From the NCBI GenBank assembly GCA_015494035.1, contig WGBZ01000369.1, forward strand, positions 1-20,051: a DNA stretch of 20,051 nt, given 5' to 3'. A model generated the notes under the pieces. The model saw only the letters and a program-made list of their open reading frames with translations, had not been told where the DNA came from and did no database searches. A program made the translations under genes and the position numbers. Below, piece by piece: positions 972 to 17,703 of the stretch; positions within the stretch are counted from its first letter, which is position 1; each line of letters begins with the position of its first letter. This DNA is from Lysobacterales bacterium. GTDB lineage: Bacteria > Pseudomonadota > Gammaproteobacteria > Xanthomonadales > Marinicellaceae.

Positions 972-1063
972 GGGAGCCTCTGATTAGATCGTGACACGGC
1001 ATCTTGCGGCGTAAAATCGTCCATTTCTGCGTTGCGAACCTTCACAATTCAATCAGAGGCTCC
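972..1063. mobile_element. Internally deleted copy (92 bp) of the GGGAAGCTCTGAT palindromic element
   Basis: The ends are inverted repeats: GGAGCCTCTGATT at 973-985 matches the reverse complement of 1051-1063. The left arm (AAATCGTCC, CTGCGTTGC, CCTTCAC) aligns with the copy at 8826-8987 read in reverse. The second arm and the CAATAG centre are missing, so this copy runs straight from the first arm into the right end. It fills the gap between convergent tldD and darP. The TTA next to its right end (1064-1066) is the complement of the darP TAA stop. The left flank is TTT, so any target duplication has decayed. It has no coding capacity and is presumably a non-autonomous transposon remnant. Confidence 0.8.
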
Positions 1064-1594
1064 TTAGCCCACAGGTGGTGGTAAAGGAGTCAGTTGATCC
1101 AGGTCACGCAGGGCCTCGAACAGTTTTCGCCGCTGCCGCTTGTCAACGGGCTGTTTTTTCTGGCACTGGCGAAGAATCTGCCTCAGGTTTTGCAGGGCAT
1201 CGGGCTGCCCACAGGCATAAAGGGCTTCCAGCCTGGAGGGGTCTTCCAGAAGGGCATCGACCCAGCGTTGCAGCAAATCGCCCCGAGCCGCGCGAGCCTT
1301 TTCCTCGGCCTCCTGCTGGGCAATGGTGGCCAGAATATGCTCGGGTTCGTTGTTAAGCAGTAATTTGGCCAGAAACTGCACTTCGCGTTTTTTGGCAATG
1401 TGACTCTTGATGCGCCGCGTTTTGGCGATGGTATCAAGAATTTTCTGGCTTAGCGGCAGACTGGCCAGCCACTCGGGCTTGCCGTCCAGCAATTGCAGGG
1501 CCAGATCCTGCATGCTGCGGGCATAATTTTTTTGTTGGGTTTTGCTGGCAAAAGCCGGCGTATCCGGTGAATCTTGATGATGGGAATCAGACAT
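1064..1594 (-). CDS. darP: Ribosome-associated protein DarP (YjgA, DUF615 family)
   Basis: The product is 176 residues starting MSDSHHQD; E. coli YjgA is 183. The family (DUF615) is an alpha-helical, highly charged protein that binds pre-50S ribosomal particles and helps late assembly of the large subunit. Family features are the basic RRIKSHIAKKREVQFLAKLL stretch, the acidic central helix, and a C-terminal half ending in a QPVDKRQRRKLFEALRDL-type segment. The ATG at 1594 was chosen over an upstream in-frame TTG at 1600. This start overlaps the divergent pmbA start, and darP divergent from pmbA is also the E. coli arrangement. No strong ribosome binding site is visible. The stop codon directly abuts a small palindromic element. 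Confidence 0.9.
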   Translation of the reverse strand: MSDSHHQDSPDTPAFASKTQQKNYARSMQDLALQLLDGKPEWLASLPLSQKILDTIAKTRRIKSHIAKKREVQFLAKLLLNNEPEHILATIAQQEAEEKARAARGDLLQRWVDALLEDPSRLEALYACGQPDALQNLRQILRQCQKKQPVDKRQRRKLFEALRDLDQLTPLPPPVG

Positions 1595-2960
1595 GAACAA
1601 GGCGCTTAGTGAGAATCAGGAAATGCAGAAGAAAATTGAACAAGCCAGGGGCATTGTTGCAGATGTATTGGAAACAGTAAAGTGCTCCGGGGCTTTTCAG
1701 GCCGAGGTGGCTTATGCCCAAGGCAGTGGCCTGTCGGTCAGCACCCGTCGTGGACAGGTTGATACCGTGGAACACAATGACGATCGATCCCTGTCGGTCA
1801 CCGTTTATTTGAAAAACAATTCCGGCGACGGACTCAGCAAGGGGTCGGCCAGTAGCGCCATTCTCGACCCCGATGCCATTGCCCTGACCATCGATAAAGC
1901 CATGGCCATCGCCGCGCTCACCGAGCCTGATCCCTACATGGGCCTGGCTGATAAATCGCTGCTGGCCAGTGAATTCCGTGAACTGGGCACCTGGCAGCCA
2001 CAGGCGGCCACGGCACAGGGCCTGATCGAGCGGGCGCTGGAAGCCGAGGCCGCGGCCAGTGCAGCAGGCGCCACGGTGGACCAAAGTGCCGTACAGCTTG
2101 GCGAATCCTTCTCTGTTTATGGCAACAGCCACGGTTTTCTGGCTCACCACACTGGCAGCAATGCCTCGGCCTCGGTGGTGGCCCTGGCCGAGCAGGACGG
2201 CGCCATGGAAAGGGATTATTGGTGGGACGCCACGCGGCAGGTCAACACGTTGCTATCCGCACAGGAAATTGGCCAGAAAGCGGCCCGCCGTACCCGGCGG
2301 CGGCTGGGTGCCCGCAAGGTGGCCTCCGGCGCTTACCCGGTGCTTTTTGAAGCGCCGGTGGCGAAAACGCTGGTGGGGCATCTGTTGCAGGCTATCAGTG
2401 GATCAGCCCTGTATCAGGACGCCAGTTTTCTCAAGGGTGCGCTGGGCGAGCCGATTTTCCCCCAGTGGTTGACCATTCAGGAAGACCCGTTTTTACCCGG
2501 CGGTTTTGCCAGCCGTAACTATGACGCCGACGGCGTTCAAACCCGTGCCCGCTCCCTGATTGAACGCGGGGTATTAGCCGGTTATCTGTTATCCAGCTAT
2601 GCAGCGCGTCGGCTGGGGCTGGAGACCACCGGCAACGCCGGTGGCTCGCATAATGTGCTGGTGCAGCCCAATGCCGGTGATTTGTCAGAGCTGCTGCAAC
2701 AAATGGGCACCGGCTTGCTGGTTACCGAAGTCATGGGTCAGGGAATCAACCTGGTAACGGGTGATTATTCCCGCGGCGCCAGCGGTTTCTGGGTCGAAAA
2801 TGGCCAGATTCAGTATCCGGTGAACGAAATCACCGTGGCCGGCAACCTCAAAGACCTGTATGCCAGCCTGCAAGCGGTGGGCAGCGATGTGGACAAACGC
2901 AGCAAAATCCAGACCGGTTCCTGGCTGTTTGATCGCATGGCAGTGGCTGGAGAAGGCTGA
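1593..2960 (+). CDS. pmbA: Metalloprotease accessory subunit PmbA/TldE
   Basis: The product is 455 residues, close to E. coli PmbA (450). It is the subunit of the TldD/TldE protease that lacks the HExxxH zinc motif and forms the chamber with TldD. The protein shows VSTRRGQVDTVEHN near the N-terminus, the central ERDYWWD segment, and the diagnostic C-terminal run MGTGLLVTEVMGQG, TGDYSRGASGFWVENG and EITVAGNLKD. The start at 1593 gives the length nearest the family and has a weak GGGA about 8 bases upstream. ATG 1623 is a possible shorter start, but its AGGA is too close. It is downstream of tldD but not obviously co-transcribed, because darP lies between them in the opposite orientation. Confidence 0.95.
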   Translation: MNKALSENQEMQKKIEQARGIVADVLETVKCSGAFQAEVAYAQGSGLSVSTRRGQVDTVEHNDDRSLSVTVYLKNNSGDGLSKGSASSAILDPDAIALTIDKAMAIAALTEPDPYMGLADKSLLASEFRELGTWQPQAATAQGLIERALEAEAAASAAGATVDQSAVQLGESFSVYGNSHGFLAHHTGSNASASVVALAEQDGAMERDYWWDATRQVNTLLSAQEIGQKAARRTRRRLGARKVASGAYPVLFEAPVAKTLVGHLLQAISGSALYQDASFLKGALGEPIFPQWLTIQEDPFLPGGFASRNYDADGVQTRARSLIERGVLAGYLLSSYAARRLGLETTGNAGGSHNVLVQPNAGDLSELLQQMGTGLLVTEVMGQGINLVTGDYSRGASGFWVENGQIQYPVNEITVAGNLKDLYASLQAVGSDVDKRSKIQTGSWLFDRMAVAGEG

Positions 2961-3067
2961 GCCGGGCCCAAAGCGGTTTCCGCTCCACTTTAGCCGCTCA
3001 TTTCGCGTTTTTCTGCCGAGCGGCAAAAGCCGCCAGCTGTTCGTCGCTGGCCGGTGGCTGGTATATA

Positions 3068-3346
3068 TTAACCCGGCACCATAATACGACACGTTCAGAG
3101 CCACAAGCCTCTTCCCTTTCAAGGCGCGTGCCGCCGGTAAGGGTGCTCCCTTGCCAAGACGCGCAACACGGAAAGGGGTGAGGCTTGTGGCTCCTCTCTG
3201 ATTGGTTTGAAAAGAAAGGCCGTGCTGTGCGCGCCCGCGAACTACGTTATCGAAACTTGCTGTAGGACTACTACAGCGGCGTTTCGAGGCCTTGCCGCGA
3301 ACACGCACAGTACGGCTGAATATGTCGTATTATGGTGCCGGGTTAA
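3068..3346. mobile_element. Palindromic element with TTAACCCGGCACC ends, carrying a nested insertion
   Basis: The two ends are inverted repeats of 31 bp with 2 mismatches: 3068-3098 begins TTAACCCGGCACCATAAT, and 3316-3346 is its reverse complement. The right arm continues inward as CCGTACTGTGCGTG. The matching left-arm sequence CCGTGCTGTGCGCG resumes only at 3220, so 3099-3219 is extra DNA. Without it the element is about 158 bp and palindromic throughout, with a core hairpin at 3251-3286 (CGAAAC, GCTGTAG, loop GACTA, CTACAGC, GTTTCG). It interrupts the 3' end of the DUF1244 gene within the codons around KARI/YQPP; the flanks are AT-rich (ATATATA) and an exact target duplication cannot be fixed. 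There is no reading frame of its own. The ends differ from those of the GGGAAGCTCTGAT family, so it is a separate family. Confidence 0.78.
3098..3193. repeat. 96-bp inverted repeat nested in the TTAACCCGG element
   Basis: GAGCCACAAGCCTC at 3098-3111 is exactly complementary to 3180-3193. Pairing then continues imperfectly inward through CCCTTTC, GCGCGT and AAGGG/CCCTT to a TGCT-type loop near 3144. It makes up most of the 121-bp stretch (3099-3219) that interrupts the left arm of the surrounding element. The remaining 26 bp or so (CTCTCTGATTGG onwards) is unexplained. It contains no gene. It could be a tiny element in its own right or a strong cruciform or RNA hairpin. Confidence 0.7.
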
Positions 3347-3455
3347 TCCTGGCTTTCCACTCGCTGTAGGGCATGCCATAGATTTTCTCGCGTGCGGCTT
3401 CCTTGTCCAATCCTATGCCTTGTTTGGCCGCGGCTTCCTGCCACCAGTCGGCTGG

Positions 3456-3615
3456 GGGAAGCTCTGATCGAATCGTGAACTCGCCTCTCATACCTTAACT
3501 GTCCGATAACTGTGTTGAAGTCCTGGCCAATAGCCAGCTATTGGCTCCGAACTTCGCCTGGTTCTCGACCATTTCAGGCATAAGTTGCTTCGTCCAGATT
3601 CAATCAGAGCTTCCC
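3456..3615. mobile_element. Full-length 160-bp palindromic element (GGGAAGCTCTGAT family) inside DUF1244 gene
   Basis: The ends are GGGAAGCTCTGATCGAATC on the left and its near-exact complement GATTCAATCAGAGCTTCCC on the right. The two arms pair imperfectly along their whole length and meet at CCAATAG-CTATTGG around 3530-3543. It aligns end to end with the copies at 15217-15376 and 17544-17703. It is inserted in the DUF1244 coding region, where the adjoining host sequence gives TGG on the left and AGG on the right, so any 3-bp target duplication has diverged. Its right end supplies the premature stop of the truncated DUF1244 frame. It has no coding capacity. Confidence 0.85.
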
Positions 3616-3820
3616 AGGCTGTTGCGGAAGGAAACCGGCCAGAATCATCAGATCGATATTTTGCACGTCCTTGTTGTTGTCCAGGTGCTGCAAGAGGCGA
3701 TCAAGCACAGCGGCCTTGATGGCATTTTCCTGTTCCGGGGTGAGGTCTTCGCTCATGTTCGGGTCTCCAAATCGTGAGATAATAGCTACCGTTATTTTCT
3801 CACACACAGGCAGTTTCAGC

Positions 3821-4681
3821 ATGAGTGCACAGATTCTGGACGGCAAAAAAGTGTCTTCCCAGCTTATCGACAAAATCCGTCAGAAAGTGGACGCGCGCGT
3901 GGCCGCCGGACACGCAGCACCAGGTCTGGCGGTGGTGCTGGTGGGTGATGATCCGGCCTCCCAGGTTTATGTTCGCAACAAGGTTCGGGCCTGTGAAAAA
4001 GCCGGCATTCGTTCCCTGTCCTGGCGCCTGCCACGCACGGTTTCAGCTCATGAGCTGTATGCCCTGATTGACGAACTGAACGAGAACCCGGAAGTGGACG
4101 GCATTCTGGTGCAATTGCCTTTGCCCGAACACATCAACGAAACCGAAGTCACCAACCGCATTCTGCCACACAAGGACGTGGACGGTTTTCATGCTGAAAA
4201 CGTCGGTCATTTGGCTTTGCGCCAACCGGGCTTGCGACCGTGCACGCCACGCGGGGTCATGACCTTGCTGGACCACTATGGCATTAATCCCAAAGGTCAG
4301 CATTGCGTGATCGTGGGCGCGTCCAATATCGTGGGCCGGCCGCTGGTGCTGGAAATGCTGTATGCCGGCGCCACCACCACCTGTTGCCACCGTTTTACCC
4401 GCGATCTGGCCGAGCACGTACGCAGCGCTGACATTCTGTGCGTGGCCGTGGGCAAGCCGGGTATCGTTAACAGCGACTGGATCAAGCCCGGTGCCGTGGT
4501 GGTGGATGTGGGCATCAACCGCAAGGCGGATGGTTCCCTGTGTGGGGACGTGGATTTTGACTCGGCGGCGGCCAGGGCCGCCTGGATTACCCCGGTGCCC
4601 GGTGGGGTTGGCCCCATGACGGTCGCCACCCTGATGCAAAACACGTACGAAGCCAGTCTGCTGAATTCGCAACAAGGTTGA
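3821..4681 (+). CDS. folD: Bifunctional methylenetetrahydrofolate dehydrogenase/cyclohydrolase FolD
   Basis: The product is 286 residues, the normal family length. The cytoplasmic enzyme converts 5,10-methylene-THF to 10-formyl-THF in two steps using NADP, feeding purine synthesis and fMet-tRNA formylation. Seen in the sequence: the YVRNK motif with catalytic Tyr50 and Lys54, Gln98 in LVQLPLP, Asp121 in HKDVDGFH, the Rossmann motif GASNIVGRP at 166-174, and the C-terminal [10 protein letters not shown] signature. The start [10 protein letters not shown] matches the family; a longer in-frame extension upstream would run antisense through the DUF1244 remnant and is not credible. The ribosome binding site is weak. 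A GATAAT at 3778-3783 is a possible -10 box, without a clear -35. It is divergent from DUF1244 and convergent with the DUF1631 gene. Confidence 0.97.
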
Positions 4682-4748
4682 TTCGTTTTCCGTTTTTTTC
4701 GGCGGCTTCTCGATTGTGCGGGCTTGTAGAGGCTTGGCGGGTTTAAAT

Positions 4749-4766
4749 GGCCTGTCCGAGCAGGCC
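4749..4766. terminator. Short GC-rich hairpin between convergent folD and DUF1631 gene
   Basis: GGCCTG and CAGGCC form a perfect 6-bp stem around a TCCGAG loop in the 104-bp gap between two convergent genes. No T-tract follows on either strand, so an intrinsic terminator is only a weak possibility. Nothing else was recognised in this gap. Confidence 0.25.
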
Positions 4767-4785
4767 CTGAACGTGCCCGGGCAGC

Positions 4786-7113
4786 TTATGCCTTGTCGCT
4801 GCTTTCCTGACCCGAGTTGTCTTTGAGCTTGTTGGCAATGGCGCTTAAGGCGCGGTCGAACAGCGGGATCTGTTCAAGGATGCGCGCCTTGCCAGAACGC
4901 AGATCGGCAGCCAGTCCAGCCGGTGATTTATCCATGACTTTCAGGCCGCGGGCATTCACAAACAGCAACTTGCCACTAATGGGGCTGATCCAGGACAGCT
5001 TGGCGCGCAGGGTCTTGCCTTCGCTGTTGGTGAATTCAAACCAGGTGCCCACTTCCAGTTTTTCCACCGTTTCGTTGTGTTCGTCGGTTTCAATTTCTTC
5101 GTCGTCGGTGTCTTCAGACAGCACAATTTCCTGAATAAAACTCTGCACTTCGGAAGGTTCAGCCTCATTGTCGGCAATTTGCAGGATGTCTTCCGGCGCA
5201 ATGAATTCCAGCTCCTCGTCGATTTCGCCGGCTTCAATGCCGTTGATGCTGGCCAGGTACTGGTACAGTTCTTCTGCCTGTTCGCGAATGTCCTTTTCCG
5301 GCACCGCCACCAGTTCCAGGCCATCGGCAAATTCTTCCATCAGGCGTTTCAGGTCCACTTCGGTGATGTTGACAATGTGCGCCGGATCCGCGTATTCGGC
5401 CAGTTTTTGGGCAAAAGTAACCTGTTGCTGGAACTCGTCGGAATCTTCGCCGTGGCGCAGGTGCATCAGGATCAGTACATTGGCCCATGGCTTGACCAGA
5501 ATGTCGCGCACAAGATCAGGCAGGGTATGGTCCTGCATCACATCCACCAGCACGCTGGCTGCGGTCTGTTTGGCCTTCTTGACCTTCTCCCGGCCCAAAG
5601 TGGCTTCGGTGACGCGTTTTTCGGCCACCACGGCACGTTTCTTGCGCCGCTCAAGAAACCGCTTAAGGTCGTCATTAAGCTGTTCAAACAGGCTCAGGTC
5701 ATCGTCGTAATCATTCAGCACCGTGTTGGTGATTTCAGTGATTTTTTCAATGAACTGCCCTTTGGGATCGCTTTCTTCGGTCCAGCTCACCGAGGCGGTG
5801 GAGAGCGTGTCCAGCAGCTGTCGCGCCGGGTGTTCCTTGTTGGCAAACAGGTGGCGATCCTGCAGGGCAACTTTCAGGTAAGGAATTTGCAAACGCGCCA
5901 GAATGGCCTGTATTTCCGGTGGCAGGTTGCGGTCTTCAACCAGAAACTGAAACAGCATGCCGACCAGGTCGATGACGTCTTCGTCGGCCCGGTCCACGTG
6001 TTTTTCATCCACGGAATCGTCCAGCTGCCGGAGCTGTTTCAGCAGTTCCTCCTTGATGGCTTCGGGTGACTTGTCGCTTTCTGTGCTGCTGGCGGTTTGT
6101 AACAGGCTGAGCGCGTTGATCAGCAAGCCCATGTCGATGGGCGTGCCAGTGGGCGCGCCGCCTTCTGCCACCGTGGCCACAGCCCGGCTGGCCAGGGCGG
6201 ATGAAATGGCCTGAAAGTTGGGATCAACCGGATAACTGACGCCGGTGGGCATCAGGTTGTACCCACCAGGAACACCCGCAGGCATGGTACCTGCACCCGC
6301 AGGTTGGTCTCCCGGCACCAGGCCGGCTTCGGCCGGTATCGCGCCGGCTGGCATGGCCCCGGCCGGGCCATGATAACCCCTGGCCGGGTTGCGACCCATG
6401 TTGAATTTGATGGTCGGGCAGACGCCGTGTTCAGCCAGGTATTGGTTGATTTCGCCATAGGGCTGGTGCAAGCCGGCAATCAGGTGGCGTTCAAACAGCT
6501 TGTAAAGGATGAGTCGGATCTGGATGTCTGCTTCCAGTTCCTGCATGGATTCGGCAAAGGATTTGACAATCGCAAACGGGCCCAGGGGAAGTTTTTTATT
6601 GTCCAGTTCCGAACCCCCACCCAGCAGCGCAAACCGTTTTTTCAGGGCAAACAAGGGCTGGTGGTAGGCAGTTTCGGCTTTGGCAATGAGGTTGTCGATG
6701 GCCAGGTTTTCTTCCAGGTCTTCATCGTCAACCAGTGACAGGTCTTCACTCAAGGCATTTGGCGTGGCGCTGGGGAAAAACTCCAGTTGACCGCGTTTGA
6801 AATCGGCAAAGACTTTTTCCAGCCGCTCGGCAAAAAGGCGCGTCATCAGGCCCTTTTTCTTGCGGATCTCGCGCATGCCATCAAAAAACAGGGTTTGCTG
6901 GCGGTTGGTTTCAGCTTTTTCGGCCAGGTCAAACAGGGTGTCATCAAGGCCATCGTAAAAGGCATCGATTTGTGGGCGGATCAGGGTCAGGAACTTACTC
7001 TTGGTCTTGCCCAGCAGGTTGTCCAGGTTCAGGTTTTCTTTTTTGTCGCGAATATTGACGATTTTTTCATCGCCGCTGTTCGGGGAGTTATTTTTATTAT
7101 CCGAATTGCTCAT
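4786..7113 (-). CDS. DUF1631 family protein, unknown function
   Basis: The product is 775 residues from the ATG at 7113 (MSNSDNKNNS). A longer in-frame start at 7194 would add 27 residues unlike the family's polar N-terminus and was not chosen. The protein matches DUF1631, large cytoplasmic proteins of gammaproteobacteria sometimes labelled thymidine phosphorylase without good reason. It is mostly helical and charged, with no signal peptide or membrane segment. Residues about 241-292 form a Pro/Ala/Gly/Met-rich linker with repeated MPAG/IPAE-type units. An acidic stretch lies near 661-684 (SEDTDDEEIETDE). The C-terminal segment near 685-720 (VGTWFEF, RAKLSWISPISGKLLFVN) resembles a PilZ-like beta domain, which suggests c-di-GMP or regulatory binding, but that is inference. 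It is divergent from pepP. Confidence 0.82.
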   Translation of the reverse strand: MSNSDNKNNSPNSGDEKIVNIRDKKENLNLDNLLGKTKSKFLTLIRPQIDAFYDGLDDTLFDLAEKAETNRQQTLFFDGMREIRKKKGLMTRLFAERLEKVFADFKRGQLEFFPSATPNALSEDLSLVDDEDLEENLAIDNLIAKAETAYHQPLFALKKRFALLGGGSELDNKKLPLGPFAIVKSFAESMQELEADIQIRLILYKLFERHLIAGLHQPYGEINQYLAEHGVCPTIKFNMGRNPARGYHGPAGAMPAGAIPAEAGLVPGDQPAGAGTMPAGVPGGYNLMPTGVSYPVDPNFQAISSALASRAVATVAEGGAPTGTPIDMGLLINALSLLQTASSTESDKSPEAIKEELLKQLRQLDDSVDEKHVDRADEDVIDLVGMLFQFLVEDRNLPPEIQAILARLQIPYLKVALQDRHLFANKEHPARQLLDTLSTASVSWTEESDPKGQFIEKITEITNTVLNDYDDDLSLFEQLNDDLKRFLERRKKRAVVAEKRVTEATLGREKVKKAKQTAASVLVDVMQDHTLPDLVRDILVKPWANVLILMHLRHGEDSDEFQQQVTFAQKLAEYADPAHIVNITEVDLKRLMEEFADGLELVAVPEKDIREQAEELYQYLASINGIEAGEIDEELEFIAPEDILQIADNEAEPSEVQSFIQEIVLSEDTDDEEIETDEHNETVEKLEVGTWFEFTNSEGKTLRAKLSWISPISGKLLFVNARGLKVMDKSPAGLAADLRSGKARILEQIPLFDRALSAIANKLKDNSGQESSDKA

Positions 7114-7437
7114 GACCGAGTTGTTCCAGTAGGGTTCTCCGGGGTGCCGCAGTGGAACCACGGGCTGGCAGGCAAACAGGCACCTGCTTACCAAGCCAGT
7201 TTATCATTTTTTTTCGCTTTTCGTGTGCGCCAGGTCACAAACCGGCGCTTGACAGTGACACCATATGGCCAAGACCGCGAGGCTCTGTTTGACAGTGTCT
7301 GTGATAAAACGCGGCACAGGCGCCAGAAAAACTGCCAAATGGCATTTCTCAAACGGGTTTTGGCATGGCATTTTTGCCAGGCTGGCAGTATAGTTGGGTT
7401 CCCTTTTTCTATTCCATTAATCCGTGAGCGTTGTTAC
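7114..7437. promoter_or_regulatory. 324-bp divergent intergenic region with TGCCA/TGGCA inverted repeats
   Basis: This gap separates the DUF1631 and pepP starts and holds no convincing gene. Two consensus TTGACA hexamers, each followed by GTG, occur 40 bp apart at 7249 and 7289, but neither has a good -10 at 16-18 bp. Nearer pepP there is a 12-bp palindrome TGCCAAATGGCA at 7333-7344 and an inverted repeat TGGCA-TTTT-TGCCA at 7366-7379, with further TGGCA copies at 7361 and 7383. TATAGT at 7389-7394 could be the pepP -10 box. The TGGCA cluster just upstream of it would suit a regulator site. This is motif reading only. Confidence 0.35.
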
Positions 7438-8745
7438 ATGATAAAACCGGAAGATTTCCGCAAGCGCCGACAACAGCTGCTGAAAACCCTGGGTGATGGC
7501 GCCATTGCCATTTTGCCTAGTGCCGAAGAAAAAATCCGCAACGGCGACGTGCACTACCCGTTCCGGCAGGACAGCGATTTCTGGTACCTGACCGGCTTCC
7601 CCGAACCTGAGGCCGTGTTGGTGCTGTGCCATGGCTGTGCCGATGGCGAACACATTCTGTTTTGCCGCGAGGCCGACCCCGTGAAAATGATCTGGGACGG
7701 CCCCATGCTGGGGACTGAAGGTGCCAGGGAGCAATTGCTGTTTGACGCGGTTTATGACATCAAGGATATTGATGCCATTATGCCCGGCTTGTTGAAAGGG
7801 CGGGAGCGGATCTGTTACCCGGTGGGTAAGGATCAGGCCTTTGACCTGAAAATACTGGGCTGGAACAAGGCGGTGGAAACGCGCAAGGGCGAAAAAAGCC
7901 AGGCACCGGAAAAATTCACCAACCTGCTGCACCACGTGCACGACATGCGTTTGTACAAAAGCCGTGACGAAGTGCGCTGCATGAAAAAGGCCGCTGACAT
8001 CGCCGCCGAAGCCCATCAGCGCATGATGCTGGCCACGGCGCCGGGAAAGAACGAAAGTGACCTGTTGGCCGAATACCTGCACACACTGGCCAGCCACCAG
8101 TCAGAGCCCAGTTACACGCCCATCATTGGCGGTGGCACCAATGCCTGTGTCCTGCATTACGTGAAAAACGACCAGCCGCTGCGTGATGGTGATCTGGTGC
8201 TGGTGGATGCCGGCGCCGAATACGACCTCTATGCCAGCGACATCACCCGCACCTTTCCGGTGAATGGTCGCTTCAGCGATGCCCAGCGGGCTTTGTACGA
8301 GCTGGTGCTGGCAGCGCACAGCGCGGCGGTGGAGCAGGTTCAACCGGGTCATCAATGGAACCGGCCTCACGATGCCGCCGTCGAGGTCATCGCCCGGGGC
8401 CTGCTTGACTTGGGGCTGTTGAAAGCACCGCTGGAACAGGTGCTGGAAGACCGGCTCTATGCGGAATTCTTCATGCACAAGACCGGCCACTGGCTGGGCC
8501 TGGACGTGCACGACTGCGGTGACTATCAGGTGGATGGCCTGTGGGTGGAAATGGAACCGGGCATGGTGTTGACCATCGAACCGGGCATTTACGTCTCGCC
8601 CCAGGCCAAGGTGGACAGGAAATGGCGCGGCATCGGCATTCGCATCGAGGATGACGTGCTGGTTACGCGCAAGGGGCCACAGATTCTCAGCAACAAAATT
8701 CCACGAGACATCGAATCCATCGAAAAACTGATGCAGGCTGGCTAA
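7438..8745 (+). CDS. pepP: Xaa-Pro aminopeptidase (PepP)
   Basis: The product is 435 residues; E. coli PepP is about 440. The cytoplasmic dimanganese M24B peptidase removes an N-terminal residue preceding proline. Residues 1-150 are the AMP_N domain (DSDFWYLTGFPEPEAV at 45-60). The C-terminal pita-bread domain shows the five metal ligands Asp257 (LVDAG), Asp268 (SDITRTFP), His351 (KTGHWLG), Glu381 (TIEPG) and Glu404 (RIEDD), plus His240. The start MIKPEDFRKRRQQLL matches the PepP N-terminus; the frame is open far upstream but that part is antisense to the DUF1631 gene. The ribosome binding site is weak. It stands alone rather than beside ubiH as in E. coli. Confidence 0.95.
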   Translation: MIKPEDFRKRRQQLLKTLGDGAIAILPSAEEKIRNGDVHYPFRQDSDFWYLTGFPEPEAVLVLCHGCADGEHILFCREADPVKMIWDGPMLGTEGAREQLLFDAVYDIKDIDAIMPGLLKGRERICYPVGKDQAFDLKILGWNKAVETRKGEKSQAPEKFTNLLHHVHDMRLYKSRDEVRCMKKAADIAAEAHQRMMLATAPGKNESDLLAEYLHTLASHQSEPSYTPIIGGGTNACVLHYVKNDQPLRDGDLVLVDAGAEYDLYASDITRTFPVNGRFSDAQRALYELVLAAHSAAVEQVQPGHQWNRPHDAAVEVIARGLLDLGLLKAPLEQVLEDRLYAEFFMHKTGHWLGLDVHDCGDYQVDGLWVEMEPGMVLTIEPGIYVSPQAKVDRKWRGIGIRIEDDVLVTRKGPQILSNKIPRDIESIEKLMQAG

Positions 8746-8825
8746 ACCCGGCTTGAAGGCTGTTTGACCAGGCCACGGGTTGCCCCTGTGGCATTAACAC
8801 TCGATATGACTGAAAGATTGATTTA

Positions 8826-8987
8826 GGGAAGCTCTGATTGAATCTGGCGCGAGCAGATTGTCGTGTAAAATTGTTCAGTTCAAGGCGCAAGCCGCACGCA
8901 ATAACAAGGCTATTGTGAAGGTTTGCAACGCAGAAATGGACGATTTGACGCCACAAGATGCCGTGTCACGATTCGATCAGAGCTCCC
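8826..8987. mobile_element. Full-length 162-bp palindromic element (GGGAAGCTCTGAT family), upstream of hydrolase operon
   Basis: The left end GGGAAGCTCTGATTGAATC and right end GATTCGATCAGAGCTCCC are inverted repeats, flanked by TTA on both sides (8823-8825 and 8988-8990), a clean 3-bp target duplication. Read in reverse, the core aligns along its whole length with the other full copies (TGCGTTG, CCTT, CAATAGC centre, CGCCTTG, CTGCT, CCAGATTC). It is more diverged than they are and lies in the opposite orientation. The right end is 35 bp before the start codon of the amidohydrolase gene, so the element occupies much of the operon's likely promoter region. Between pepP and the element (8746-8825) I see only a weak possible hairpin. 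Confidence 0.86.
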
Positions 8988-9022
8988 TTATTAAACCAAC
9001 CACCAAAACACGGGGACACACC

Positions 9023-10315: not shown

Positions 10316-10316
10316 C

Positions 10317-11033: not shown

Positions 11034-12988
11034 GTCACCAGACCAAGCCGTTTTTTCAACCGGCCAAAGCCGCCAAACTGGCCCTTTTTCTGCTTATTAT
11101 TCTGGGGGGCGCTATCTGGTTGGGGAAAGGTTTTTTCGACCAATCCGCCAACCGCGAGGCCATGCCAGAAAAGCAGGTGCTGGCAGAAAATACTGCCCAT
11201 GCGCCAGAGGCCCAGACTAAACAGGCCAAAAAAACCCGGCCTGCGCGCACCGAAGCGCAAAAGGCGCGTCAGGTGTATCGTTGGTACGACGAGCAGCAGC
11301 TCAAGCTCAACCCCTTGTCGGCCACTTTTCGGGGCGATCATCGCTACGATGACCAGTTACCCAATTTTCTTGGTGCCCAGTGGCGTGCCAAAGCCAGAAA
11401 ACTGGAAGAAGACGCCTTGAAGCGCATCCAGAAAGTGGATCGCAAGGCCTTGCCACACAGCGAACAGACCTCTTACGACCTGTTTGTGGCCAAACGCAAA
11501 AACGCGCTGGAAGGCTTCCTGTACCCCGACCACTTGATGCCCATCAATCAGTTTTACTCCTTGCCGAATCAATTTGCCATGCTGGGTTCTGGTTCCCAGG
11601 CGCAGCCTTTCAAAACCGTCCAGGATTACCAAAACTGGCTCAAGCGCATGGACGGCGGCGTGGTCTTGCTGGATCAGGCCATTGCCAACATGAAGGAAGG
11701 CCAGGCCAAGGGCTATTCCCAACCCAAGGTGCTCATGCAGCGGGTGTTGCCGCAACTGGAGGCCCTGCTCACCGACAAGGTGGAAGACAGCCTGTTCTGG
11801 CAGCCAGTCAAAAACATGCCGGCGGATTTTTCCGATGAAGACAAGGCCCGATTGACGGCCGCCTATCGTCAGAAGCTGACCGAGAAAGTCATTCCGGCCT
11901 ATCAGCGGCTGTATGACTACATCAAGAACGACTACCTGCCCAAGGCGCGTGACACATATGGCCTGTACGACGTGCCCCAAGGCAAGGACTGGTACGCCTA
12001 CAAGGTCAAAACCATCACCACCACCGATTACACGCCAGAACAGATTCACGAAATTGGCAAGCAGGAAGTTAAACGCATTCACCAGCAAATGCGCGACATC
12101 ATGCAGCGGGTGGGTTTTACCGGCAGCCTGCAGGAATTTTTCGAATTCACCAAGAACGATCCGCAGTTTCATTTCAAGAGCAAGGAGGAACTGCTGCAGG
12201 CCTATGCTGACCTGAAAGACCGGATTAATGCCAAAGTACCGGAAATCTTTGAAATTTTTCCCAAGGCCGACTTCGAAATCCGCCCGGTGGAAGCTTTCCG
12301 CGAAAAATCCGCCTCTGGCGCCTCCTACCAGAGCCCGTCGGCCGATGGCAAACGCCCCGGCGTTTTTTATGTCAACACCTACGACCTGAAGGCGCGGCCA
12401 AAATGGGGCGTGGAAAACCTCTACCTGCATGAAGCCGTCCCGGGCCATCATTTTCAGCTTTCCATTCAGCAGGAATTGCCCAATCTGCCCAATTTCCGCA
12501 AATTCGGTGGCTACACCGCGTTTGTGGAAGGCTGGGCGCTGTATTCCGAAGGACTGGGCAAGGAGCTGGGTGTGTATCAGGATCCCTACAGCGAATTTGG
12601 CCAGTTAAGCGCCGAACTGTGGCGGGCCATCCGGCTGGTGGTGGATACAGGCATTCACCAGTTTGGCTGGTCGCGCGACAAGGTGCTGGAATACATGTAC
12701 GCCAACGCCCCGGTTGTGGAAGCCCGCGCGGTGTCCGAGGCCGAACGCTTCATGGCCATTCCCGGTCAGGCACTGGCTTACAAGATCGGCCAGATGAAAA
12801 TCAGGCAGTTACGCGAAAAGGCCGAAAATGAACTGGGTCAGGACAAGTCCGTGGTCAAGGGCTTCCACACCCAGGTGCTGAATGAAGGCGCGGTGCCGCT
12901 GGATTTTCTCGAGCAGAAAGTTAACCGCTGGATTGCGGACAAGAAGGCCGAACAGGCCGCCTCTGCTTCACACCCGAACACGCCGTGA
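11030..12988 (+). CDS. DUF885 family metallopeptidase-like protein, membrane-anchored
   Basis: The product is 652 residues. One hydrophobic segment at about residues 16-33 (LALFLLIILGGAIWLG) follows a short basic N-terminus, which fits a signal anchor with the body in the periplasm; no lipobox is seen. A charged linker follows to about residue 85, then the DUF885 domain. The domain's HExxPGHH motif is present as HEAVPGHH at 467-474, and the C-terminal YMYANAPV and PGQALAYKIGQ segments fit the family. DUF885 proteins are regarded as zinc peptidases of the gluzincin type. The start ATG overlaps the previous stop (ATGA), with AGGAG at 11017-11021. Beside a periplasmic amidohydrolase it suggests peptide processing, which is inference. 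Confidence 0.92.
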   Translation: MSHQTKPFFQPAKAAKLALFLLIILGGAIWLGKGFFDQSANREAMPEKQVLAENTAHAPEAQTKQAKKTRPARTEAQKARQVYRWYDEQQLKLNPLSATFRGDHRYDDQLPNFLGAQWRAKARKLEEDALKRIQKVDRKALPHSEQTSYDLFVAKRKNALEGFLYPDHLMPINQFYSLPNQFAMLGSGSQAQPFKTVQDYQNWLKRMDGGVVLLDQAIANMKEGQAKGYSQPKVLMQRVLPQLEALLTDKVEDSLFWQPVKNMPADFSDEDKARLTAAYRQKLTEKVIPAYQRLYDYIKNDYLPKARDTYGLYDVPQGKDWYAYKVKTITTTDYTPEQIHEIGKQEVKRIHQQMRDIMQRVGFTGSLQEFFEFTKNDPQFHFKSKEELLQAYADLKDRINAKVPEIFEIFPKADFEIRPVEAFREKSASGASYQSPSADGKRPGVFYVNTYDLKARPKWGVENLYLHEAVPGHHFQLSIQQELPNLPNFRKFGGYTAFVEGWALYSEGLGKELGVYQDPYSEFGQLSAELWRAIRLVVDTGIHQFGWSRDKVLEYMYANAPVVEARAVSEAERFMAIPGQALAYKIGQMKIRQLREKAENELGQDKSVVKGFHTQVLNEGAVPLDFLEQKVNRWIADKKAEQAASASHPNTP

Positions 12989-12996
12989 GTCAGTGC

Positions 12997-13668
12997 ATGG
13001 ACACCGGTTTCTGGATCGAGAAGTGGCAGCAGCGGCAGATTGGCTTTCATGAGGGCCGCCCCAATGCCTCGCTGCAACAGTGGTTTCATGCCATGCGGCT
13101 TGCTCCTGGCGATCACGTGTTTGTGCCCCTGTGTGGCAAAAGCCAGGATTTGCTGTGGTTGCTGGGGCAGGGTGTGCGGGTCACCGGCTGTGAGTGTTCA
13201 CCGCTGGCCGTGAATGAGTTTTTTGCCGAAAACGACTTGCGGCCACAAAGCCGCGAGGCCGCATCCGGTCATGTTGTTCATGATTGCGGCGAGCTGAGTT
13301 TATGGCAGGGGGATTTTTTCTCTCTGCCGGCTGCGGTGCTGAACGACGCCGATGGCGTGTATGATCGCGCGGCCCTGATTGCCTTGCCGCCGGACATGCG
13401 GCAAGGCTATGTGCAGAAATTCCGGCAGGAACTCCGACCCGGCACGCCCACACTGCTGGTGACGCTGGATTTCCAGCGCGATCCGGCTGCCTGTAACAAC
13501 TACCAAGGCCCGCCATTTCCGCACACCGACGCCATGGTGCAAGCACAGTACCGGGACTTTTCTTCCATCCGGAAACTCGGCCAGCGCGATATTCTCGCCA
13601 ACGAACCCAAATTCCGCGCCCAGGGCGCCACCAGTGTTTATGAAAAAACCTGGCTTATCCACCGCTAG
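12997..13668 (+). CDS. tpm: Thiopurine S-methyltransferase (bacterial TPM)
   Basis: The product is 223 residues, the usual length for bacterial TPM (about 218-229). The cytoplasmic SAM-dependent enzyme methylates thiopurines; bacterial members also methylate selenium and tellurium oxyanions. The family start MDTGFW, the SAM motif VPLCGKSQDL at 43-52, YDRAALIALPP and the GPPFPHT segment are all visible. ATG 12997 was chosen because family members begin MD-xFW. GTG 12985 in the same frame overlaps the DUF885 stop (GTGA) and would add four residues. It is the last gene of the operon. The stop TAG at 13666-13668 runs directly into a sequence resembling the end of the small palindromic elements. 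Confidence 0.95.
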   Translation: MDTGFWIEKWQQRQIGFHEGRPNASLQQWFHAMRLAPGDHVFVPLCGKSQDLLWLLGQGVRVTGCECSPLAVNEFFAENDLRPQSREAASGHVVHDCGELSLWQGDFFSLPAAVLNDADGVYDRAALIALPPDMRQGYVQKFRQELRPGTPTLLVTLDFQRDPAACNNYQGPPFPHTDAMVQAQYRDFSSIRKLGQRDILANEPKFRAQGATSVYEKTWLIHR

Positions 13669-13689
13669 GGAGCCTCTTGATAAAACCGA

Positions 13690-13715
13690 AAAAAAGGGCC
13701 AAGCGGCCCTTTTTT
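13690..13715. terminator. Bidirectional intrinsic terminator between tpm and prpD
   Basis: AAAAAAGGGCC and GGCCCTTTTTT form a perfect stem around an AAGC loop. The A-tract on one side and T-tract on the other allow termination in both directions, which suits the convergent genes tpm and prpD whose stops lie on either side. Confidence 0.9.
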
Positions 13716-13739
13716 GTTGCCTGTGGAGTGGCTTTCGGG

Positions 13740-15188
13740 TCAGAGCGTGACCAGCTCCATAAACTCGGTAATGGGGCGCTGGGCGAATTCGGCCTGATCC
13801 TTGGTCAATTCCAGGATTTTTCTGACTTTTTTGGCAGACAGGTGGCTGGCAATGGCGTCTTCGAATTTTTTTAGCAACACGGGGATGCCTTCTTCGCGCC
13901 GCAGGCGGTGTCCGATGGGGTAGTTGATTTCAATCCGGTCGGTGCTGCTGCCGTCCTTGAAAAAGATCTGGATGGCGTTGCCGATGTAGCGTTTGTCCGG
14001 GTCGAAATATTCTTCGGTGAATTTCGGGTTTTCCACCACTTCCATCTTCTCGCGCAAGGCGTCAATGCGTGGGTCGCAGGCCACCTCGTCTTCATAATCG
14101 GCAGCCGTCAGGCGGCCATGCACCAGCGGCACGGCAACCATGTATTGAATGCAGTGGTCGCGGTCGGCGGGGTTGTCCAGTGTGCCGGTTTTGTCGATGA
14201 TGCGCACGCCGGCTTCCTGGGTTTCGATTTTGATTTTTTCGATCTCGTCCAGGCGGTCCTTGACTTCCGGATGCAATTTCATGGCCGCTTCCACGGCGGT
14301 TTGGGCATGAAACTCGGCCGGGAAGGAGATTTTGAACAACACGTTTTCCATCACGTAGGAATCGTAGCCGCGCGGAAAGGAAAATTCCTTGCCCTTGAAC
14401 AGCACGTCATAAAAGCCCCAGCCCTTGGCCGACAGCGCCGAGGGATACCCCATTTCACCGGTCAGGGCAATCAGGGCCAGTTGCACCGCACGGCGGCAGG
14501 CATCGCCAGCGGCCCAGCTTTTGCGCGATCCGGTGTTGGGCGCGTGGCGGTAGGTGCGCAAGGCGCCGCCGTCGATCCAGGCGTTGGAGACGGCATTGAT
14601 GATTTCTTCGCGGGTTCCACCCAGCATGTGCGTGACCACGGCGGTGGAGGCCACCCGCACCAGCAACACATGGTCCAGCCCGACGCGGTTGAAGCTGTTT
14701 TCCAGCGCCAGAATGCCCTGTATCTCGTGCGCCTTGATCATGGCTGTGAGCACGTCGTGAACGGTCAGTGGCTCCTTGCCCTGATCTTCGCGCTGGCGGG
14801 AAATGTAATCGGCCACGGCCAGAATGGCGCCAAGATTGTCGGAAGGGTGGCCCCATTCGGCGGCCAGCCAGGTGTCGTTAAAGTCCAGCCAACGAATCAA
14901 TGCTCCGTTGTCAAAGGCACCTTTGACCGGATCCAGTTCGTACGGAGTGCCCAAAACGCGGGAGCCGTTTTCCAGCGTGGCGCCGGGCACCACCGGGCCA
15001 AGCAGCTTGACGCATTCGGGGAATTTCATCGCCAGCATGGCACAGGCGGTGCTGTCCAGCAGGCAGTAGTGAGCGGTTTTATACGCTTCTTCGCTGTCAA
15101 TGGTGCGGTTAATGACGTAATCGGCGATGTCCACCAGCACCTGATCGGGTTCTGGGCGTTTGGCGGAACGGATATCGACTGAACTCAT
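13740..15188 (-). CDS. prpD: 2-methylcitrate dehydratase PrpD
   Basis: The product is 482 residues; E. coli PrpD is 483. It is a member of the MmgE/PrpD family that dehydrates 2-methylcitrate to 2-methyl-cis-aconitate in the methylcitrate cycle of propionate breakdown. It is recognised by the N-terminal helical domain ([32 protein letters not shown]), the [16 protein letters not shown] stretch and the C-terminal [13 protein letters not shown]. It is cytoplasmic. AGGAG about 7 bases before the ATG supports the start. It is the last gene of prpB-prpC-prpD, separated from prpC by a 160-bp palindromic element. The iron-sulfur pair acnD/prpF, which replaces prpD in many gammaproteobacteria, is absent here. 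Confidence 0.96.
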
Positions 15189-15216
15189 GGAATGGCTCCT
15201 GTATGGGTTGCGGTTA

Positions 15217-15376
15217 GGGGAACCTCTGATCGAATCGTGAACTCGCTTCTCACACCTGAAATGTCCGATAACTGCGTTGAAGTCCTTGCCAATAGCTCGC
15301 TATTGGCTGCGAACTCCGCCTTGTTCTCGACCATTTCCGGCATAACCTGCTTCGTCCAGATTCAATCAGAGCTTCC
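15217..15376. mobile_element. Full-length 160-bp palindromic element (GGGAAGCTCTGAT family) between prpC and prpD
   Basis: The ends GGGGAACCTCTGAT and ATCAGAGCTTCC are inverted repeats, flanked by TTA at 15214-15216 and 15377-15379, a clean 3-bp target duplication. The right-hand TTA is the complement of the prpC TAA stop, so the element went into the stop codon and duplicated it without harming the protein. The arms pair around CCAATAGC-TC-GCTATTGG. This copy and the one at 17544-17703 differ at only about a dozen positions, so both may be fairly recent. Lying inside the prp operon, it would be transcribed as a strong hairpin and could affect prpD expression or mRNA stability. Confidence 0.9.
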
Positions 15377-16504
15377 TTAGTGGCGTTCTTCAATGGGGGT
15401 GACACGGCGCGGTTCCGGCCCGACGTATTCGGCATTGGGACGGATAATGCGGTTATTGGCGCGCTGCTCCATCACGTGGGCAGCCCAGCCGGTGACGCGT
15501 GACATGACAAAAATGGGCGTGAACAACTTGGTGGGTATGCCCATGAAATGGTAGGCCGAAGCGTGGAAGAAGTCGGCATTGGGGAACAATTTCTTTTCTT
15601 CCCACATGGTCTTTTCCACTTCGACGCTGACCGGATAAAGCACCGTATCGCCCACTTCTTCGGCCAGTTTTTTTGACCAGCTCTTGATGATGGCATTGCG
15701 TGGGTCGCTGGTGCGGTACACGGCGTGGCCAAAGCCCATGATGAGTTCCTTGTTGGCCAGTTTGTCAAGAATCGCCTGGCGGGCTTCTTCGGGTGAGTTC
15801 CACTGTGCAATCATGTCCATGGCCGCTTCGTTGGCGCCACCGTGCAGCGGGCCGCGCAGGGCGCCAATGGCTGCGGTGATGCACGAGTGCATGTCCGACA
15901 GGGTGGAAGCCACCACGCGGGCGGTGAAGGTGGAGGCATTGAATTCATGTTCGGCATACAGAATCAGGGACACGTCCATGACCCGCTCGTGCAGCGGGTT
16001 GGGTTTTTCACCGCGCAACAGGTGCAGAAAATGCCCGCCAATGGTGTCGTCATCGGTTTCGGTTTCAATGCGCACGCCGTCGTGGGTAAAGCGGTACCAG
16101 TAGGCAATGATGGACGGGAACACAGCCAGCAGGCGATCGGCCACGTCGTGCTGTTGAGAGAAGTCTTTTTCCGGTTCCAGATTGCCCAGAAAAGAACAGC
16201 CGGTGCGCATCACGTCCATGGGGTGGGCGTCGGCCGGGATCATTTCCAGTGCGGCTTTAAGTTCTTCTGGCAGGCCACGCAGGGATTTGATTTTGGCCCG
16301 ATAGGCTTCCAGTTGCTCGCGGGTGGGTAATTCGCCATAAAGAATCAGGTAGGCCACTTCCAGAAACTCGGCCTTGTCGGCCAGTTCCGCGATGTCGTAG
16401 CCGCGATAGGTCAGTCCGGTGCCGGAAACACCCACGGTGCACAATTCGGTTTGTCCGGCAATTTGCCCGCGCAAGCCGGCGCCTCCAATTTTCTTTTCAG
16501 CCAT
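15377..16504 (-). CDS. prpC: 2-methylcitrate synthase PrpC
   Basis: The product is 375 residues, a citrate-synthase-fold enzyme that condenses propionyl-CoA with oxaloacetate to 2-methylcitrate. The catalytic residues are visible: His221 in GPLHGGANE, His260 in GFGHAVY and Asp311 in NADFFHA. The short length without an N-terminal regulatory extension, and the position between prpB and prpD, identify it as PrpC rather than GltA. AGAGGAG just before the ATG is a strong ribosome binding site. The TAA stop coincides with the target duplication of the adjoining palindromic element. Confidence 0.96.
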   Translation of the reverse strand: MAEKKIGGAGLRGQIAGQTELCTVGVSGTGLTYRGYDIAELADKAEFLEVAYLILYGELPTREQLEAYRAKIKSLRGLPEELKAALEMIPADAHPMDVMRTGCSFLGNLEPEKDFSQQHDVADRLLAVFPSIIAYWYRFTHDGVRIETETDDDTIGGHFLHLLRGEKPNPLHERVMDVSLILYAEHEFNASTFTARVVASTLSDMHSCITAAIGALRGPLHGGANEAAMDMIAQWNSPEEARQAILDKLANKELIMGFGHAVYRTSDPRNAIIKSWSKKLAEEVGDTVLYPVSVEVEKTMWEEKKLFPNADFFHASAYHFMGIPTKLFTPIFVMSRVTGWAAHVMEQRANNRIIRPNAEYVGPEPRRVTPIEERH

Positions 16505-16524
16505 GATGATCTCCTCTTGCTGAG

Positions 16525-16549
16525 GCCCGGCGCAGTAATGTCACCGGGC
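16525..16549 (-). promoter_or_regulatory. Small hairpin in the prpB-prpC gap
   Basis: GCCCGG at 16525-16530 pairs with CCGGGC at 16544-16549 across a 13-base loop in the 64-bp gap between prpB and prpC, upstream of the prpC ribosome binding site. No T-tract follows, so it is more likely an mRNA-stability or attenuation structure than a terminator, if it matters at all. Confidence 0.3.
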
Positions 16550-16568
16550 GGGTCTTCAAGGGCAGCGA

Positions 16569-17459
16569 TTAATCACTGTCCTTGCTGAATAATTCGTCGA
16601 GTTTTTGTTCGTAGGCGTGGTAGTCGAGGTAACCATACAGTTCCTCGCGGGTTTGCATTAGCGGCAACACGTCGTGCTGATGGCCTTTTTCGAGAATGGA
16701 CTGGTACACGGTCTCGGCCGCCTTGTTCATGGCCCGGTAGGCGCTGCAGCAGTAAAGCACCATGTCCACGCCCACTTCAGCCAGTTGCTCGCTGGTATAC
16801 AGCTCGGTTTTGCCGAATTCGGTGATATTGGCCAGAATGGGCACCTTGACGGCCTGCTTGAATTGTCGGTATTGCGCCAGGCTTTGCACTGCTTCGGGGA
16901 AAATCATGTCGGCACCGGCTTCCACGCAGGCCACGGCCCGTTCGATGGCCTTGTCCATGCCTTCCACGGCCAGGGCGTCGGTGCGTGCCATGATGACAAA
17001 GCTGTCATCGGTGCGCGCATCCACGGCTGCCTTGATGCGATCCACCATTTCCGCTTGCGACACGATGGCCTTGCCGGGGCGGTGTCCACAGCGTTTCTGG
17101 GCCACCTGGTCTTCAATGTGGGTGGCTGCCGCGCCGGCCTTGATCAGTGACTTAACCGTGCGGGCGATGTTAAAAGCACCGCCAAAACCGGTGTCCGAGT
17201 CCACCAGCAATGGCAGTTCGGAGGCGTCGGTAATGCGCCACACGTCAATCAGTACGTCATGCAGGTCGCTGATGCCCAAGTCCGGCATGCCCAGTGAATT
17301 GGCCGCCAGTCCACCGCCGGAGAGGTAAATAGCCTGATGGCCGATCTGCTCGGCCATGCGTGCGGTGTAGGCATTGATGGTGCCGACAATTTTCAGGGGC
17401 TGGTTGTTTTTAACGGCCGCACGAAAGCGCTGGCCCGGCGTGCTACGGGTAATGGTCAT
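16569..17459 (-). CDS. prpB: 2-methylisocitrate lyase PrpB
   Basis: The product is 296 residues, as in E. coli PrpB. It belongs to the isocitrate lyase/PEP mutase superfamily and cleaves 2-methylisocitrate to pyruvate and succinate, the last step of the methylcitrate cycle. Visible active-site elements are IYLSGGG, the metal-binding DSD at 87-89, HIEDQ near 114-118, and the KRCGHRPGK motif with Cys124 and His126. It is the first gene of prpBCD. Its upstream region has a perfect TATAAT box. No prpR or prpE is present in the window. The ribosome binding site before the ATG is weak. Confidence 0.97.
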
Positions 17460-17484
17460 GGCTATTCACGCAAAAAGAAAGGCG

Positions 17485-17526
17485 GCCGGCATTATATCAC
17501 CGGCCACCGGATGAGACTAATTAGTG
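17485..17526 (-). promoter_or_regulatory. Likely prpBCD promoter with palindromic operator candidates
   Basis: On the minus strand a perfect TATAAT (17491-17496 on the plus strand) lies about 32 bases before the prpB start. It is embedded in GGCCGG-CATTATATCA-CCGGCC, whose 6-bp arms make an inverted repeat over the -10. A 10-bp perfect palindrome ACTAATTAGT lies about 20 bp further upstream, at 17517-17526. The -35 position is poor (TAGTCT-like), which fits an activator-dependent or regulated promoter. The regulator is not in the window. Confidence 0.45.
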
Positions 17527-17543
17527 GCGGCTAATAAACTCTA

Positions 17544-17703
17544 GGGAAGCGCTGATCGAATCGCGAACTCTCTTCTCACACCTGAAATGTCCGATAACTG
17601 CGTTGAAGTCCTTGCCAATAGCCCGCTATTGACTGCAAACTTCGCCTTGTTCTCGAACATTTCCGGCATAAGCTGCTTCATCCAGATTCAATCAGTGCTT
17701 CCC
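17544..17703. mobile_element. Full-length 160-bp palindromic element (GGGAAGCTCTGAT family) between permease gene and prpB
   Basis: The ends GGGAAGCGCTGAT and ATCAGTGCTTCCC are inverted repeats with one mismatch. Both differ from the family's CTCTGAT at the same place, leaving a G-T wobble pair. The flanks are CTA on the left and TTG on the right, so the target duplication is not intact. The arms pair around CCAATAGC-CC-GCTATTG. It ends 14 bp past the stop codon of the metal ABC permease gene, upstream of the prpB promoter, so it may act as a transcription barrier between the two operons. Confidence 0.88.

What the first reader, a model, noticed from the sequence alone, without database searches (positions are those of the whole stretch)
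972..17703. Five copies of a small whole-length palindromic element in 17 kb
Copies at 972-1063, 3456-3615, 8826-8987, 15217-15376 and 17544-17703 share ends (GGGAAGCTCTGATTGAATC type). The four full copies are 160-162 bp and each can fold end to end into one imperfect hairpin around CAATAG-CTATTG. The 8826 copy aligns with the others only in reverse and is more diverged, yet keeps the palindromic plan. Clean TTA duplications flank two copies. The 3-bp TNA-type target and ends recall IS5-group transposons, so these are probably MITEs moved by a transposase elsewhere in the genome. That parentage is inference.
Basis: partly seen in the sequence, partly recalled or inferred. Interest (0 to 1): 0.7.

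Follow-up and report, generated by a model that had tools for sequence, protein, structure and literature searches.

The report
Palindromic jumping elements with folded core
The repeats are small gene-less jumping DNA elements whose interior is a conserved fold of one particular strand; the same fold rides on elements with quite different ends in many other bacteria, which suggests that the fold itself has a job.

Summary
The copies are one MITE family in two subtypes (158 and 161 bp) with over 400 ends in the genome. The duplication is 4-bp YTAR, not 3-bp TTA. IS5-family ISs with the same ends and YTAR flanks occur in two other gammaproteobacterial genomes; no such transposase was found in this genome or two congeners.

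The larger finding lies inside. The end-to-end hairpin is kept by compensatory changes, on one strand. Its 82-nt core, two conserved internal loops between freely varying helices, matches 111 of 398 sampled genomes of the phylum. It sits in elements with several different ends, singly (~160 bp) or as an inverted pair (~270 bp). One pair, TTAA-flanked and with other ends, lies at 3072-3342 of this window and was missed. Variants shared among copies keep the fold; private ones show no preference. I infer that the folded strand serves the element's own spread. RNA or ssDNA is unsettled. Rfam has no match; MRSC-65-2 is the nearest described kind.

The parts
973..1063 (-). Internally deleted copy of subtype S2 (91 bp); no core match
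   Evidence: Ends and length; reverse match to the 8827 copy; full-length copy at the orthologous site of G002; no core hit there
3072..3342 (.). Double-core MITE with other ends (CCCGGCACCATAATACGACA), 271 bp, TTAA on both sides
   Evidence: Inverted repeat I3, sequence, ends and flanks, MFE -166.4 with z -15.5 (folded as 3071-3343); absent at the G002 site
3105..3186 (+). First core of the 3072 element
   Evidence: R1 E=2e-13, R2 E=1.5e-16
3226..3309 (-). Second, inverted core of the 3072 element
   Evidence: R2 E=2.8e-7
3457..3614 (-). S1 copy, 158 bp; core 3495-3576 (-)
   Evidence: near-exact empty site in G002
8827..8987 (+). S2 copy, 161 bp; core 8866-8948 (+)
   Evidence: absent at the G002 site
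15219..15376 (-). S1 copy, 158 bp, between the prpD-type and citrate-synthase-type genes; core 15257-15338 (-)
   Evidence: shared with G002, absent in G001
17545..17702 (-). S1 copy, 158 bp; core 17583-17664 (-)
   Evidence: 80 bp in G001 against 244 in the window at this place

Best explanation
These are non-autonomous IS5-type elements (MITEs). A transposase of the IS5 group, acting in trans, recognises their 18-19-bp GGAAGCTCTGATTGAATC-type ends and inserts them at YTAR with a 4-bp duplication (ends, flanks and sites without the element are shown; the act of transposition is inferred). Their interior is a conserved folded module: outer helix, internal loop CAAGGC(G)/AACGC.G, a 7-bp helix, internal loop CGC/AAG, apical stem-loop. 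The module is kept by compensatory change on one strand and is shared by MITEs with several different ends, as one copy or as an inverted pair so that each strand carries one (shown). I infer that the module works in cis as a folded single strand that copies need in order to spread: folded RNA made from the element as first choice (about 50%), a single-stranded DNA hairpin exposed at replication or transposition as second (about 35%). What binds it is unknown.
For: Ends, YTAR flanks and copy number; absence or presence at orthologous sites; IS5-family transposase inside identical ends in G416 and Halothiobacillus STB_50, nine left and three right ends in G416 all with YTAR flanks, and core-bearing MITEs with the same ends in that Halothiobacillus genome (L112, L116). 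Covariation: 34 of 64 pairs in 8 lineages, score 0.504 against 0.063-0.107 slid; 29 of 32 pairs in 56 cores, 0.875 against 0.10-0.17. One strand: RNA energy lower on the same strand in 8 of 8 lineages; G.T 130 against A.C 10. Shared core under different ends. Shared variants 26 G.T to 5 A.C, private 38 to 28. Folded strand runs with co-directional genes 69 to 38, p=0.0035.
Against: No helper transposase in G000, G001 or G002. The orientation bias is carried mainly by subtype S2 (own 20:10, G002 20:7) and is not significant in S1 alone (22:16 and 9:7); gene and replication direction are confounded in it. The private-versus-shared contrast weakens at the looser cut of two copies (38:13 against 38:28, Fisher p=0.078). 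The same strand is also favoured with DNA parameters, so RNA is not singled out. No transcript was seen; no binding factor is known.
Confidence: 0.62

Rival explanations
1. Ordinary IS5-group MITEs. The palindrome is a by-product of an inverted duplication whose arms are kept alike by template switching at replication (quasi-palindrome correction), and the shared core is only a leftover of common descent.
For: Whole-length near-palindromes are common in this set. Private variants show no structural preference. Template switching is an established mutational process (recalled).
Against: Correction restores Watson-Crick pairs on both strands alike, but G.T exceeds A.C strongly on one strand (59:28 strand-neutral; 130:10). 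Near-invariant letters lie in the unpaired loops while helices vary (1.24 against 0.73 bits). The core is kept where the ends and the rest differ.
Confidence: 0.15
2. The fold serves the host at the insertion site, as a terminator, RNase III site or mRNA stabiliser in untranslated regions, and copies are kept for that.
For: Orientation bias with neighbouring genes, strongest where a gene's 5' end faces the element (66 to 31, p=0.0005); the 3'-end class is borderline (88 to 63, p=0.050). About a quarter of copies supply a stop codon (22 of 83 against 16.5% of 541 control YTAR sites).
Against: Private variants in single copies show no constraint on the fold (38:28). Six of the seven window sites compared between congeners differ in presence or length of the element or were not comparable; only 15219 is an intact shared copy. 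The stop-codon excess is weak and follows from YTAR containing TAR on both strands.
Confidence: 0.13
3. The module acts as a single-stranded DNA hairpin, not as RNA: exposed on one strand at the replication fork or during transposition and read by a protein there.
For: DNA folding also prefers the same strand in 13 of 13 single-core elements folded. The orientation bias could follow the fork, because genes tend to run with it (recalled).
Against: G.T pairs are about 7% of paired positions, easier to bear in RNA. No replication-direction test was made; no Y1 transposase or integrase was looked for.
Confidence: 0.3

Closest known systems
IS5-family MITEs (BrickBuilt and MITEPgRS of Porphyromonas gingivalis, ATR of Neisseria; PMC4596501, passages seen)
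   Same: Non-autonomous, ends matching IS5-family ISs, no transposase remnant.
   Different: Different interiors; nothing in the passages seen about a strand-specific covarying core. One end type met here (GAGACCTCTGCATAA) resembles the ISNme1 end GAGACCTTTGCAAAA given there.
MRSC-65-2 mobile/repeat structured motif (PMC11109978, passages seen)
   Same: Long stem with strong covariation, dozens of copies per genome, thought selfish, RNA or DNA form left open.
   Different: Its hallmark UYCCGG repeat is absent here (2 of 14 elements have one occurrence, 12 none). Its figure and alignment were not seen.
REP and REPIN repeats
   Same: High-copy extragenic palindromes.
   Different: REPs are described as 20-40 bp with GTAG or CGTC tags (PMC3733652, abstract in the listing); these elements have DDE-type ends and target duplications. 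RAYT genes were not searched.
Correia elements of Neisseria
   Same: About 100-160-bp palindromic MITEs (recalled).
   Different: Other ends and TA target (recalled, not tested).

Membership tests
MITE | Short, without a transposase gene, terminal inverted repeats, many copies | tested here: met
   157-163 bp for most of 107 copies; 203 + 209 ends
MITE | Target site duplication | tested here: met
   62 of 121 identical 4-bp flanks; control 0.5%
MITE | Mobility seen as presence and absence at orthologous sites | tested here: met
   only the 3457 site is near exact
MITE | Autonomous partner in the same genome | tested here: not met
   No match in G000, G001, G002; partner and MITEs do occur together in Halothiobacillus STB_50
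IS5 family, IS5 group | YTAR target | tested here: met
   98 of 121 with YTAR on at least one side; IS5 linked to YTAR in PMC10359306 (passages)
IS5 family, IS5 group | Same ends as an IS with an IS5-family DDE transposase | tested here: met
   L196: PF05598, PF01609, NF033581 at 329 bits; ends. No single contig shows one whole copy with both ends
Rfam family | Match at gathering score | tested here: not met
   0 in the window, 0 in 10 loci; only chance-level matches at E up to 5
MRSC-65-2 | Conserved UYCCGG repeat | tested here: not met
MRSC-65-2 | Match of its alignment to the core model | not testable with these tools
   Alignment not held
REP/REPIN | RAYT (Y1) transposase partner | not tested
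   No Y1 family was searched

The most novel reading that the evidence does not exclude
The core is a distinct, widespread selfish module: a one-strand folded RNA or ssDNA device with two sequence-specific internal loops that passes between MITEs served by different IS5-type transposases. It is kept because some factor common to these bacteria reads the fold and the element needs that to spread. Double-core elements are its orientation-independent form.
Probability: 0.42. Interest if true: 0.87.

Novelty: new variant of a known kind. Interest (0 to 1): 0.74.

Why it matters
MITEs are usually read as bare ends around junk. Here the interior is a highly conserved part, under strand-specific structural selection, found in over a quarter of the sampled genomes of a phylum (111 of 398) and under several ends. 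If the reading holds, MITEs have an interior function, and the open question of how non-autonomous elements outnumber and outlive their helpers becomes testable: find what reads the loops.

Tried and rejected
3-bp TTA duplication: replaced by YTAR. L061 (IS427-type by recall; NCBIfam transpos_IS5_3) as parent: rejected, it has its own ends and is inserted in an element remnant. L062 (IS1182) as parent: its nearest end-like sites have 3 mismatches. L110 ORF as parent: an FtsW-type protein. Special stop-codon targeting: only a weak excess. Clostridia elements as proven homologues of the core: not established; they share ends, length and a covarying hairpin, but 11 of 200 gamma-Clostridia interior comparisons beat all 100 shuffles, model R1 hits one locus of the Clostridia set (L146, E=1.7e-6) and R2 only at E=0.11. 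The gamma-gamma count wrongly included self-pairs; corrected, 41 of 45 distinct pairs exceed all 200 shuffles. Literature: ten searches showed no description of this core in the listings and passages seen; only openly licensed PMC text was searched, no supplements.

Full report
OBSERVATION. All five copies are present, with borders 973-1063, 3457-3614, 8827-8987, 15219-15376 and 17545-17702. Each full copy is self-complementary over its length: best alignment to its own reverse complement 42-56, maximum 19-21 in 200 shuffles each. The genome (G000, 2.14 Mb, 386 contigs, 88% complete) holds 203 forward and 209 reverse end motifs and 0 of the reversed pattern. There are two subtypes: S1 (158 bp; 3457, 15219, 17545) and S2 (161 bp; 8827 and the deleted 973). 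Of 107 distinct own copies in my sample, 101 of 150-170 bp were classed: 57 S1 and 44 S2, mean identity to consensus 0.947 and 0.936.

TARGET AND MOBILITY. Of 121 own copies with enough flank, 62 have identical 4-bp flanks, 63 have YTAR on both sides, 98 on at least one; in the congener G002, 33, 38 and 55 of 62. Control positions give 0.5% identical and 0.6% YTAR. Some copies sit head to tail 3-4 bp apart. G001 and G002 match most of the window. In G002 the 3457, 8827 and 3072 elements are missing, the 15219 insertion is shared and the 973 site carries a full copy; G001 lacks the copies at the 973 and 15219 sites, and its intervals at 3457, 8827 and 17545 are shorter accordingly. Junctions often differ; only the 3457 site is near exact. 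G001, 99% complete, has no copy in two searches.

PARENT. G000 has two PF01609 matches: L061, with its own ends and inserted in an element remnant, and L062, IS1182. Of 29 genomes holding such ends, 17 have PF01609 matches. In two an IS5-family transposase lies directly inside an identical end: L196 in G416 (325 aa, PF05598 and PF01609, NF033581 at 329 bits) and L202 in Halothiobacillus STB_50 (79% identical, cut by the contig end). In G416 nine left ends and three right ends of this IS are seen, all YTAR-flanked, but on different contigs, so no whole copy is seen in one piece. A related IS with similar ends is complete at 1,211 bp with TTAA on both sides in G402 (L197). The L196 protein has no match in G000, G001 or G002; 5 of 14 genomes searched match. 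The helper type is known; a helper in this genome is not.

THE FOLD. Eight related elements from different gamma lineages align end to end. On the consensus hairpin, which was predicted from the same alignment, 34 of 64 pairs change on both sides with pairing kept; covariation 0.504 against 0.063-0.107 for slid structures, 0 of 500 shuffles as high. Thirteen Clostridia elements with like ends and length show 26 of 60 pairs with double changes.

ONE STRAND. In homologous orientation the same strand folds better as RNA in 8 of 8 lineages (-71 to -93 against -44 to -76 kcal/mol), 57 of 57 S1 and 44 of 44 S2 copies (not independent), and 13 of 13 Clostridia elements. Strand-neutral pairing gives 59 G.T to 28 A.C in the 8 lineages and 58 to 34 in the Clostridia. 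This speaks against a double-strand cruciform and against plain palindrome correction.

THE CORE. A covariance model of the central 82 positions (R1) matches elements with different ends. Ends seen with the core: GGAGCCTCTGATC (L379), GGGCACCTCTATTGATTC (L382), GAGACCTCTGCATAAGTC (L383; variants in L387, L389, L390, L398, L067), CTAG-TGTACCCCGCC (L401, L407), AGTGTCCTG types (L388, L391, L412, L426), CTAG-GGTCTGTTCCCG (L420, L432), CTAG-GGGGCGTTCTC (L411) and, in this window, TTAA-CCCGGCACCATAATACGACA. For several other loci the ends could not be placed. The ISNme1 end GAGACCTTTGCAAAA is IS5 family (PMC4596501, passages), so several of these ends may belong to IS5-family relatives (inference). 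Double-core elements carry one core + then one -, about 20-25 bp apart (39 in the window element), and measure 264-272 bp where ends are clear. Both strands of the window element fold equally (-165.3 and -164.8).

In 56 aligned cores 29 of 32 pairs have double changes; covariation 0.875 against 0.10-0.17 slid (the alignment was fitted to the model). Unpaired columns carry 1.24 bits on average, paired 0.73; the near-invariant letters are those of CAAGGC, CGC, AAG and AACGC, in the internal loops and their closing pairs, with a milder peak in the apical stem; G.T outnumbers A.C 130 to 10, though the model leans to this strand. R1 matches 62 of 151 genomes of the order, 22 of 64 genera (E<=0.001); R2 matches 111 of 398 of the phylum, 56 of 213 genera (E<=1e-4). 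Both scans score few candidates per genome, so copy numbers are lower bounds. None of 13 loci with parental or other transposases contains the core, nor do 10 loci of the G001 syntenic region. Rfam: no match.

WHAT IT DOES. At Watson-Crick pairs of the S1 and S2 consensus, variants seen in one copy are 38 G.T to 28 A.C. Variants in at least three copies are 26 to 5 (p=0.0002; against private, Fisher p=0.012; S1 16:1, S2 10:4); in at least two, 38 to 13 (against private p=0.078). So the fold seems to matter for copies that spread, while inserted copies drift; parallel mutation could inflate the shared class. Among 176 distinct insertions of two genomes the folded strand runs with co-directional neighbours 69 to 38 (p=0.0035), with genes whose 5' end faces the element 66 to 31 (p=0.0005), with genes whose 3' end faces it 88 to 63 (p=0.050) (genes called by my own codon model). 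Apart, the co-directional count is 42:26 (p=0.068) in G000 and 29:14 (p=0.032) in G002, significant in neither genome for S1. This fits RNA but is confounded with replication direction, and DNA parameters prefer the same strand in 13 of 13 single-core elements.

KNOWN OR NEW. IS5-family MITEs are known. A selfish motif with a long covarying stem, MRSC-65-2, is described (PMC11109978, passages), but its UYCCGG repeat is absent here. Ten searches of open papers showed no description of this core. I file it as a new variant of a known kind; the core as a separate, shared module is the part that would surprise a specialist.

Noticed in passing
L099:1084-1110, L104:5435-5461, L150:2674-2700, L177:6186-6212, L187:75-101: 27-bp perfect or near-perfect palindromes made of two ends back to back, some YTAR-flanked: minimal elements, or footprints of loss.
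   Followed up: no
L115, L127, L138, L163 and other Clostridia loci: Oscillospiraceae and related Clostridia carry 159-162-bp whole-length hairpin MITEs with the same ends and YTAR flanks but another interior: horizontal spread or convergence on one length.
   Followed up: partly
window 1064 and 15377: The YTAR at the element border supplies the stop codon of the DarP-type and citrate-synthase-type genes; genome-wide 22 of 83 elements with a YTAR side do so for a frame of 100 codons or more, against 16.5% of 541 control YTAR sites.
   Followed up: yes
L061:1474-2365: An IS5-family IS (transpos_IS5_3, two overlapping frames) flanked by CTAG is inserted in or beside an element remnant.
   Followed up: partly
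L399:13-1160: Five cores within 1.2 kb, two of them complete inverted pairs, in one genome.
   Followed up: no
L093, L094, L095: Three viral contigs hold one exact end motif each; not examined.
   Followed up: no
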